From: Peptococcaceae bacterium
GTDB taxonomy: Bacteria; Bacillota; Peptococcia; DRI-13; PHAD01
Length of the DNA stretch: 64,000 bases
NCBI GenBank assembly: GCA_024655825.1
Contig: JANLFJ010000007.1
Span: 35,904-99,903, forward strand
Reading direction: 5' to 3'
In this document: positions 53,389 to 54,866 of the stretch, in pieces
Numbering within the stretch: the stretch's first letter is position 1
Layout: each line of letters begins with the position of its first letter
Translations under genes and position numbers: made by a program
Notes under the pieces: model-generated
Seen by the model: the letters and a program-made list of their open reading frames with translations, nothing else
What the model was told of the DNA's origin: nothing
Database searches by the model: none

Positions 53389-54048
53389 ATACGGCTCACA
53401 GACCGGCAGGAGCAAATCGTCAGGATCGTGAAAGAACATGGGCCGATTAAGGGAGAAGAGATTGCGGATATTCTCGGTTATGTGAAGGCAACGCTGCGGC
53501 CGGATTTGACCGTGCTGACCAGAGCCGGGCTGCTGGAAGCCAGGCCCCGGGTGGGTTATTCTTATTCGGGGAAAGGACTTGCTTCCAGGCTGTATGAAGA
53601 AATAAACAAGATAAAGGTTAAGGACATGAAAGCGGTTCCTGCTGTTGTCAGCGAAATATCAACAGTCTATGACGCAATTGTGACCCTTTTTGTGATGGAT
53701 GTCGGCAGCCTGTTTGTGGTAAGCGAAGGCGGGCTGCTGGAAGGGGTTGTGTCTCGCAAGGACCTGCTGAAGGTGTCACTGGGACAGGTTGAAATTCAAA
53801 AAGTCCCGGTTTCTGTCGTTATGACCAGGATGCCCAATATCGTCATGACCACACCGGAAGAATCGCTGTGGGCCGCGGCCAAGAAAATGGTCGACCACGA
53901 GATAGACTCTTTGCCGGTGGTCCGCCCTGCTTATAATGAGGGACGGCAAGGATTTGAAGTGATTGGCAGAATTACAAAAACCACTATAACCAGGGCTTTT
54001 GTTGAATTAGGGCAGGGTAAATTTATGGAAGGAGGGGAAATGTTATAA
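53389..54048 (+). CDS. ccpN: CcpN-type repressor (winged helix plus CBS pair)
   Basis: 219 residues. N-terminal HTH: RQEQIVRIVKEHGPIKGEEIA and KATLRPDLTVLTRAGLLEARPRVGYSY; then two CBS domains with VGSLFVVSEGGLLEGVVSRKDLL and VIMTRMPNIV-like MTRMPNIVMTTPEESLW. CcpN represses gluconeogenic genes in Bacillus. The 8-base site GGGGGTGA (53376-53383) points to ATA 53389; GTG 53380 and TTG 53374 overlap that site or precede it. Family certain, start inferred. Confidence 0.93.
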   Translation: MRLTDRQEQIVRIVKEHGPIKGEEIADILGYVKATLRPDLTVLTRAGLLEARPRVGYSYSGKGLASRLYEEINKIKVKDMKAVPAVVSEISTVYDAIVTLFVMDVGSLFVVSEGGLLEGVVSRKDLLKVSLGQVEIQKVPVSVVMTRMPNIVMTTPEESLWAAAKKMVDHEIDSLPVVRPAYNEGRQGFEVIGRITKTTITRAFVELGQGKFMEGGEML

Positions 54049-54866
54049 CACTGCCAACAATATATGTGATTTCTGATTCCTTGGGAGAGACGGCCGAATT
54101 TGTGGCGAAGGCCGCAGCCAGCCAGTTCAATTCGGGGCAGGTGGAAATAAAAAGGATCCCCTATGTCAATGATGAAGAGCATATTGCGGAAATTTTAGCG
54201 GAAATGGCCGGGCAGAACGCCATGATCGCTTTTACCTTGGTTTTGCCAAGGCTGCGCCAGTGCCTGCTGGATAAAGCACGTGAATACAATATTTTAGCGG
54301 TGGATGTCTTAGGGCCGATGCTTGATGCCTTTTCCAGGCTGTCCCAAACGCCGCCCCGCTTGGAACCCGGGCTGCTGCACAAGCTTGATGAGGACTATTT
54401 CAGCAGGGTGGAAGCCATAGAGTTCGCGGTCAAATATGACGACGGGAAAGACCCGCGGGGCATCCTTTACGCCGATATCGTGCTTATCGGCATTTCCAGG
54501 ACTTCCAAGACCCCGCTTTGCATGTACCTGGCCCACAAGAGAATCAGGGCGGCCAACGTTCCGCTGGTGCCGGAGGTCTCGCCGCCGGAAGAACTGTTCA
54601 GCATCCCGCCCCGCAAGATAGTGGGATTGACTGTAAAACCAGAGATACTTAACCCCATACGCCAGGAAAGGCTTAAATCGCTGGGACTCGCGCCGAGCGC
54701 CGACTATGCGAGCATGGAAAGGATACTGAAAGAAATCGAGTACGCGGAGAAAATCATGAGCAAAATAGGGTGCCCGGTCATAGATGTCTCCAATAAGGCC
54801 GTGGAAGAGACGGCCAGCCGCATCCTACAGATATATTACAGGGGGGAACAAAGTGAAAGAAAGTAA
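54045..54866 (+). CDS. ppsR: Pyruvate, phosphate dikinase regulatory protein (kinase/pyrophosphorylase)
   Basis: 273 residues, DUF299 family. N-terminal TIYVISDSLGETAEFVAKAA, P-loop-like GISRTSKTPLCMYLAHKRI, and C-terminal PVIDVSNKAVEETA. It phosphorylates (ADP as donor) and dephosphorylates the active-site threonine of PPDK, whose gene is next. GGAGG (54031-54035) is 9 bases before ATA 54045, which overlaps the ccpN stop as ATAA. The first canonical in-frame start, GTG 54066, would remove the conserved first strand and has no site. Also called ppdR or yqfL. Confidence 0.94.
   Translation: MTLPTIYVISDSLGETAEFVAKAAASQFNSGQVEIKRIPYVNDEEHIAEILAEMAGQNAMIAFTLVLPRLRQCLLDKAREYNILAVDVLGPMLDAFSRLSQTPPRLEPGLLHKLDEDYFSRVEAIEFAVKYDDGKDPRGILYADIVLIGISRTSKTPLCMYLAHKRIRAANVPLVPEVSPPEELFSIPPRKIVGLTVKPEILNPIRQERLKSLGLAPSADYASMERILKEIEYAEKIMSKIGCPVIDVSNKAVEETASRILQIYYRGEQSERK

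What the first reader, a model, noticed from the sequence alone, without database searches (positions are those of the whole stretch)
54025..54080. AUA start codon for ppsR, overlapping the ccpN stop as ATAA
The open frame of ppsR has no ATG, GTG or TTG before the conserved first strand (TIYVISDSLGETAE). A perfect GGAGG (54031-54035) stands 9 bases before ATA 54045, and that ATA overlaps the ccpN TAA by two bases, exactly like common ATGA overlaps. The first canonical codon, GTG 54066, would remove part of the first beta strand and has no ribosome site. pgpH and ccpN in the same window show the same pattern, so AUA initiation may be a habit of this organism.
Basis: partly seen in the sequence, partly recalled or inferred. 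Interest (0 to 1): 0.75.

Follow-up and report, generated by a model that had tools for sequence, protein, structure and literature searches.

The report
Conserved AUA start codon in ppsR
The metabolic regulator gene ppsR has no ordinary start codon within reach of its ribosome-binding site and is likely translated from the rare codon AUA; most of the related genes examined carry AUA, AUU or AUC at the matching place, which would keep this switch protein scarce.

Summary
In detail: between its upstream stop (54018) and GTG 54066, ppsR has no ATG, GTG or TTG; ATA 54045 lies 9 nt after AAGGAGG and overlaps the ccpN TAA. Comparison makes ATA the likely start. In 11 distinct ppsR loci seen from the window's order the aligned codon is ATA in 9, ATT in 1, different in 1. 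Of 97 distinct ppsR loci, 63 offer only AUA/AUU/AUC at Shine-Dalgarno distance, 12 both kinds, 16 only AUG/GUG/UUG, 6 neither. The neighbour ccpN, placed by homology alone, has AUG/GUG/UUG (56) or AUA/AUU/AUC (38) at its first codon in 94 of 94 loci, never anything else. The control gene ppdK is canonical. pgpH shows the same pattern in part of the order. AUA is not a habit of this organism: in 1.264 Mb (824 ORFs) only pgpH, ccpN and ppsR met the rule for ATA. So this is a gene-specific, long-conserved weak start that probably throttles regulators of the PEP-pyruvate node. An AUA start of ccpN was shown in Staphylococcus aureus in 2026 (PMC13009471); ppsR and pgpH are new members of that kind. 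Initiation at AUA and its effect are untested here.

The parts
54045..54866 (+). ppsR (kinase/pyrophosphorylase, regulator of pyruvate phosphate dikinase) read from ATA; 273 aa
   Evidence: PF03618 profile positions 1-256 of 256 matched at residues 6-261, 349 bits; no ATG/GTG/TTG upstream in the open frame
54045..54047 (+). ATA, predicted start codon of ppsR
   Evidence: Shine-Dalgarno duplex -13.4 kcal/mol at spacing 9; ATA at the aligned codon in 9 of 11 distinct same-order loci seen
54029..54035 (+). AAGGAGG, Shine-Dalgarno sequence of ppsR, inside the 3' end of ccpN
   Evidence: sequence
54045..54048 (+). ATAA overlap: ppsR ATA shares two bases with the ccpN stop TAA
   Evidence: sequence; start lies 4 nt before the end of the ccpN stop also in L007, L010, L051, L052, and in L055 and L056 if their aligned ATA is taken
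53389..54048 (+). ccpN (HTH plus CBS-pair repressor) read from ATA 53389
   Evidence: PF08279/PF08220 and CBS matches; first codon column over 94 loci holds only AUG, GUG, UUG, AUA, AUU, AUC
53376..53384 (+). GGGGGTGAT, Shine-Dalgarno sequence of ccpN; contains an in-frame GTG (53380) without a ribosome site of its own above the -4 kcal/mol cut
36155..38332 (+). pgpH (7TM-HD phosphodiesterase) read from ATA 36155 (ATC 36152 cannot be excluded)
   Evidence: PF07697, PF07698, PF01966; start context in relatives
36140..36146 (+). AAGGAGG, Shine-Dalgarno sequence of pgpH
54066..54068 (+). GTG, first canonical codon of the ppsR frame; rejected as start
   Evidence: no Shine-Dalgarno pairing, codon not kept in relatives, lies inside the Pfam domain

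Best explanation
ppsR lacks any in-frame AUG, GUG or UUG at ribosome-binding distance and is likely translated from the AUA codon at 54045, a weak start whose place most examined relatives fill with AUA, AUU or AUC and which would hold this regulator of pyruvate phosphate dikinase at a low level. Shown by sequence and comparison: the open frame, the strong Shine-Dalgarno sequence, the ATAA overlap, the codon exchange AUA/AUU/AUC/AUG/GUG/UUG at the first codon of ccpN, the codons at Shine-Dalgarno distance in ppsR, and the restriction to a few genes. Inferred: the ordinary initiator tRNA pairs with AU and tolerates the third-base mismatch because the Shine-Dalgarno helix is strong; ribosomes ending ccpN at the overlapping UAA may restart on the AUA; IF3 discriminates against such codons, so output would be a fraction of an AUG start and sensitive to initiation conditions. 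The purpose would be to keep the regulators of the PEP-pyruvate node (CcpN for transcription, PpsR for PPDK activity) scarce, and possibly responsive to growth state.
For: Open frame and duplex energies. Same-order relatives: ATA at the aligned codon in 9 of 11 distinct loci, ATT in L066, another codon (GGT, with an ATG three codons on) in the divergent L029; three further same-order matches were not fetched. 97 distinct ppsR loci: 63 only AUA/AUU/AUC at Shine-Dalgarno distance, 12 both, 16 only AUG/GUG/UUG, 5 other, 1 without Shine-Dalgarno; in 55 of the 63 the next canonical codon lies inside the conserved domain. ccpN first codon placed by homology alone: TTG 26, ATG 23, ATT 16, ATA 12, ATC 10, GTG 7 of 94, no other codon. 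Sister loci L074 and L087 (fork support 90) differ by ATA versus ATG in the same context. Shine-Dalgarno duplexes are stronger with AUA/AUU/AUC: ccpN means -14.0/-13.2/-12.8 against -9.1 (ATG), -9.1 (TTG), -11.7 (GTG); ppsR -12.66 (76 loci) against -11.14 (18). Control in the same loci: ppdK canonical in 64 of 67, and the other three have an ATG there too. Parsimony on a quick PpsR tree: 7 (ppsR) and 5 (ccpN) switches between the two codon classes, but 12 and 10 changes among AUA, AUU and AUC. Experimental parallel: ribosome profiling and reporters show AUA initiation of ccpN in S. aureus at about 10-30% of AUG (PMC13009471, section 10 read).
Against: No ribosome profiling, N-terminal peptide or reporter for this organism or for any ppsR. 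16 of 97 ppsR loci are canonical and 12 are ambiguous; two of the 63 (L059, L063) have an ATG one base after the Shine-Dalgarno sequence that the rule disregards. For 30 of the 63 ppsR loci and 28 of the 38 ccpN loci some ATG/GTG/TTG stands upstream in the open frame, often inside the Shine-Dalgarno sequence itself. Loci are related, so counts are not independent. The ppsR start column was chosen by Shine-Dalgarno score among candidates that included AUA/AUU/AUC; only the ccpN column and the same-order ppsR column are free of that choice. The stronger-Shine-Dalgarno test for ppsR counted two CTG picks as canonical. Throttling, coupling and IF3 dependence are inferences.
Confidence: 0.82

Rival explanations
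1. Translation starts at GTG 54066 (or CTG 54051) and the ATA is ordinary upstream sequence.
For: GTG 54066 is the first canonical codon of the frame.
Against: No Shine-Dalgarno pairing for GTG (+1.3) and a misplaced, weaker one for CTG (-7.3 at spacing 12); neither codon is kept in same-order relatives, which have GTC, GTT or GTG and ACC, ATA, ACT, GTT or ATC there; GTG lies inside PF03618 and inside the stretch aligned to the solved maize protein.
Confidence: 0.04
2. The ATA is a sequencing or assembly error for ATG.
For: The window comes from a draft genome of 98 contigs.
Against: Independent assemblies share ATA at the codon: 9 of 11 distinct same-order loci; AUA, AUU and AUC recur in dozens of further genomes.
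Confidence: 0.01
3. The AUA is a neutral by-product of the overlap with the ccpN stop: a TAA or TAG stop overlapped by four bases dictates ATA, and coupling makes start strength irrelevant.
For: Seven of nine ATA loci of the order have the four-base overlap ATAA/ATAG, counting L055 and L056 at their aligned ATA.
Against: L053 and L054 keep ATA without that overlap; outside the order the commonest arrangement is a 12-15 nt gap (36 of 93 loci) with AUU or AUA still in place; ccpN and pgpH show the same codons where no such overlap was examined as a cause.
Confidence: 0.1
4. ppsR is made as a frameshift extension of CcpN rather than by initiation.
For: The genes overlap and ppsR lies in the -1 frame.
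Against: Distance between the ccpN stop and the ppsR start ranges from strong overlap to over 100 nt among relatives, and a strong Shine-Dalgarno sequence precedes each start.
Confidence: 0.01
5. The organism uses AUA starts generally, for example through an altered initiator tRNA or IF3.
For: Three ATA starts in one 64 kb window; infC ATA as well.
Against: Only those three among 824 ORFs in 1.264 Mb met the rule for ATA (ORFs with a weak canonical alternative were not counted, two such ATA candidates appear). No tRNA with anticodon UAU in the 16 of 30 fetched tRNA loci scanned. The codons are shared with distant genera, so no organism-specific change is needed.
Confidence: 0.02

Closest known systems
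AUA start codon of ccpN in Staphylococcus aureus, conserved in Bacillus subtilis (Kohl et al. 2026, PMC13009471; section 10 and passages seen)
   Same: Same operon neighbour (ccpN), same codon, strong Shine-Dalgarno sequence at proper spacing, gene of the PEP-pyruvate/gluconeogenesis node; the window's own ccpN is an orthologue with ATA.
   Different: That paper does not mention ppsR or yqfL (0 occurrences) and its conservation statement in section 10 concerns S. aureus and B. subtilis; here the codon class is found in ppsR, ccpN and pgpH across many Bacillota, by sequence only.
AUU start of Escherichia coli infC, and AUA infC in S. aureus (the first known to me from the literature and seen only as a reference title; the second in PMC13009471)
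   Same: Rare AUU/AUA start, thought to be screened by IF3 and used for regulation; infC of this genome also has an ATA at Shine-Dalgarno distance.
   Different: infC encodes IF3 itself and autoregulates; ppsR encodes a metabolic regulator.
AUU start of E. coli pcnB (Binns and Masters 2002, reference title only seen)
   Same: An inefficient start codon that limits expression of a potent enzyme.
   Different: Different gene and phylum; breadth of conservation not compared here.

Membership tests
Genes with a rare AUA/AUU/AUC start (infC, pcnB, ccpN kind) | No AUG, GUG or UUG in frame at Shine-Dalgarno distance | tested here: met
   window ppsR; 63 of 97 distinct loci, 12 ambiguous, 16 canonical
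Genes with a rare AUA/AUU/AUC start (infC, pcnB, ccpN kind) | Strong Shine-Dalgarno sequence at usable spacing | tested here: met
   -13.4 kcal/mol, spacing 9; as strong or stronger in 15% of 452 canonical ORFs with a strong site
Genes with a rare AUA/AUU/AUC start (infC, pcnB, ccpN kind) | Codon kept in relatives and exchanged with canonical starts at the same place | tested here: met
   same-order column 9 ATA and 1 ATT of 11; ccpN column 94 of 94 within six codons; L074/L087 pair
Genes with a rare AUA/AUU/AUC start (infC, pcnB, ccpN kind) | Ribosomes initiate there | not testable with these tools
   needs ribosome profiling or N-terminal peptides
Genes with a rare AUA/AUU/AUC start (infC, pcnB, ccpN kind) | Change to AUG raises output; IF3 dependence | not testable with these tools
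   needs reporters; shown elsewhere for ccpN (AUG effect) in PMC13009471
PpsR / Kinase-PPPase (PF03618) | Full-length profile match above the curated cut-off | tested here: met
   349 bits against 23.5, profile 1-256 of 256
CcpN | N-terminal HTH and CBS pair, next to ppsR | tested here: met
   (CBS in two stretches); ccpN upstream of ppsR in 109 of 110 loci

The most novel reading that the evidence does not exclude
A small set of genes (ppsR, ccpN, in some lineages pgpH, and infC) forms an ancient AUA/AUU/AUC-start regulon: lineages trade the weak start between the two neighbours of one operon (ppsR in Desulfotomaculum-like bacteria, ccpN in Bacillus-like ones, both in the window's order; at least one clear case in 77 of 94 loci), so that the PEP-pyruvate switch is tied to IF3 and initiator-tRNA state rather than to a gene-specific sensor.
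Probability: 0.3. Interest if true: 0.75.

Novelty: new member of a known kind. Interest (0 to 1): 0.55.

Why it matters
If true, a regulator of central carbon metabolism has been held on a deliberately poor start codon across much of Bacillota, and gene finders that allow only ATG, GTG and TTG will place its start wrongly (in the ORF listing of this window the protein loses its first strand). It turns a general question, what rare start codons are for, into a test on a compact operon: swap one base in ppsR or ccpN and measure PPDK activity and carbon flux.

Tried and rejected
Genome-wide habit: rejected for AUA. One search showed no clear enrichment of ATA after Shine-Dalgarno motifs at 5' ends (6 against 2.9 expected from gene interiors). 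Altered initiator tRNA: no UAU anticodon in the part scanned. Known RNA element around the ccpN promoter and ppsR start: Rfam gathering search of 53200-54300 gave none. Other starts and frameshifting: see rivals. One search printed loci from minus-strand matches in the wrong orientation; one search corrected it. In one search my motif failed on 14 of 30 infC loci; in the 16 read, an AUA/AUU/AUC stood at Shine-Dalgarno distance in each; own infC was read. In one search the value for L002 (-834) is a failed projection of the ccpN end. Dropped rows: 13 of 110 ppsR loci as identical duplicates; three of 97 for ccpN (L012 no ccpN, L119 and L126 cut); 18 of 97 rows not counted in the ppsR switch count. 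The 80 named loci are the best 80 of 341 relatives, hence biased to near kin; of 37 PF03618 matches, 30 were fetched.

My note said that all same-order relatives have ATA; that was too strong and is corrected here (9 of 11 seen).

Full report
What is there. The window is part of contig C7 of an unnamed draft genome of 3,160,002 bases in 98 contigs. Around 54045 lies the end of ccpN and the beginning of ppsR, followed by ppdK. The ppsR frame opens after TAA 54018-54020 and holds no ATG, GTG or TTG until GTG 54066. AAGGAGG stands at 54029-54035, ATA at 54045-54047 after nine bases, and that ATA shares two bases with the ccpN stop TAA 54046-54048. By computed pairing with the 16S 3' end, ATA 54045 scores -13.4 kcal/mol at spacing 9, CTG 54051 -7.3 at spacing 12, GTG 54066 nothing. 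The Pfam profile starts at codon 54060 and the solved maize regulatory protein (5d0n) aligns from residue 5 of the ATA-started protein, codon 54057, so a start at GTG 54066 would cut into the conserved fold.

Relatives of the same order. A family search found PF03618 in 36 of 60 relatives; 30 of 37 matches were fetched. With the named loci, 11 distinct same-order ppsR loci were seen. Counted back from the first profile position, the fifth codon is ATA in nine (window, L007, L010, L051-L056), ATT in L066, and GGT in the divergent L029, which has an ATG three codons on. The codons on either side vary. Three more same-order matches were not fetched. A sequencing error is therefore excluded, and CTG 54051 and GTG 54066 are not kept.

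Wider comparison of ppsR. One search gave the best 80 of 341 relatives in named genomes. Together with the loci and the window there are 110, of which 97 are distinct. By one fixed rule (strongest Shine-Dalgarno site; AUA/AUU/AUC at spacing 5-10, canonical codons at 4-12) 63 have only AUA, AUU or AUC, 12 have both kinds, 16 only AUG, GUG or UUG, 5 other arrangements, 1 no site. Among the 63, ATT is the only candidate in 31, ATA in 21, ATC in 4, and 7 have two neighbouring candidates. Thirty-three of the 63 have no canonical codon anywhere upstream in the open frame; the other 30 have one, mostly far from or inside the Shine-Dalgarno sequence; in 55 the next canonical codon downstream lies inside the conserved domain. 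L059 and L063 have an ATG one base after the Shine-Dalgarno sequence, which the rule disregards. The start column was chosen by Shine-Dalgarno score, so it is partly chosen; of 94 loci with a call it holds AUA/AUU/AUC in 76, against 0-9 in each of the seven flanking columns from -4 to +3.

ccpN as an unbiased check. For ccpN no choice was made: the first codon was projected from the protein alignment alone (in six loci over two or three unaligned residues). In 94 of 94 distinct loci that codon is TTG (26), ATG (23), ATT (16), ATA (12), ATC (10) or GTG (7) and never another (three of 97 loci lacked a usable ccpN). Pairing is stronger where the codon is weak: mean -14.0, -13.2 and -12.8 kcal/mol for ATA, ATT and ATC, -9.1 for ATG and for TTG, -11.7 for GTG. 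For ppsR the means are -12.66 (76 loci) and -11.14 (18 loci, two CTG among them; Mann-Whitney p 0.0005, related rows not corrected). Against this, 28 of the 38 ccpN loci with AUA/AUU/AUC have some canonical codon upstream in frame, commonly the GTG inside the Shine-Dalgarno sequence; in seven the in-frame stop lies within four codons and leaves almost no alternative.

Control and distribution. In the same named loci ppdK, the next gene, is canonical in 64 of 67, and the other three have an ATG at the place too. On a quick PpsR tree of 97 rows the switch between AUA/AUU/AUC and canonical needs 7 changes for ppsR (79 rows counted; shuffles average 14.7) and 5 for ccpN, while changes among AUA, AUU and AUC need at least 12 and 10. 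An A-to-G change would turn AUA into the best start codon, so its rarity suggests, without proving, selection for a weak start. ppsR and ccpN do not switch together: of 94 loci, 22 have AUA/AUU/AUC clearly in both, 39 in ppsR with canonical ccpN, 16 in ccpN without a clear one in ppsR, and 17 have no clear case.

Not a habit of the organism. In window plus 60 stretches (1.264 Mb, 824 coding ORFs) 82 ORFs lack a canonical start with a ribosome site; ATA at Shine-Dalgarno distance near the 5' end occurs among them in pgpH, ccpN and ppsR only (a further ATA in ppsR is internal). The screen is blind to ORFs with a weak canonical alternative; two ATA candidates of that sort appear. Own infC reads GGAGGTGTACAAC ATA with an in-frame ATG inside the Shine-Dalgarno sequence.

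pgpH. Of 30 fetched loci (39 of 40 genomes have the family), 13 from five families of the order have AUA, AUU or AUC in the context GGAGGAGAT or close to it; 16 are canonical, and one more pick (L151) is an internal artefact. Four of the 13 have some canonical codon upstream in frame, in L142 directly before the ATT.

Mechanism. The most likely reading is a weak start made usable by a strong Shine-Dalgarno sequence, in the window's order also coupled to the end of ccpN by a four-base overlap (seven of nine ATA loci). Outside the order the commonest spacing is a 12-15 nt gap (36 of 93), so the codon does not depend on the overlap. That IF3 screens such codons, and that output is low and condition-dependent, is inferred from the ccpN work in S. 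aureus, where AUA gave about 10% of AUG in RPMI and up to 30% in BHI (PMC13009471, section 10), and from general knowledge of infC.

Novelty. PMC13009471 already describes the ccpN AUA start. It does not mention ppsR or yqfL, and searches in the held library with ccpN, yqfL, PPDK regulatory protein, DUF299, pgpH and rare-start terms found no report for ppsR or pgpH (listings; passages of PMC2824700 and PMC7028823). The library lacks most subscription papers.

Noticed in passing
L043:16937-17464 and L250:14060-14662: Two short ORFs resembling prepilin peptidases (name by eye) each have a CTG at Shine-Dalgarno distance (-12.6 and -13.3 kcal/mol) and no canonical start with a site.
   Followed up: no
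L044:5941-6585 (minus strand): A regulator-like ORF has ATT at Shine-Dalgarno distance (-12.1) with only a weak GTG alternative.
   Followed up: no
L236:13001-14062: An ORF that looks like release factor 2 (by eye) has no canonical start in its long frame, as expected of a programmed frameshift.
   Followed up: no
L161-L190 (infC loci): infC has AUA, AUU or AUC at Shine-Dalgarno distance in all 16 loci that could be read of 30, in line with the known rule for that gene.
   Followed up: partly
L031:3760-4428 (minus strand): A very strong Shine-Dalgarno sequence (-16.6) stands before GCC ACG with no canonical start; start unclear.
   Followed up: no
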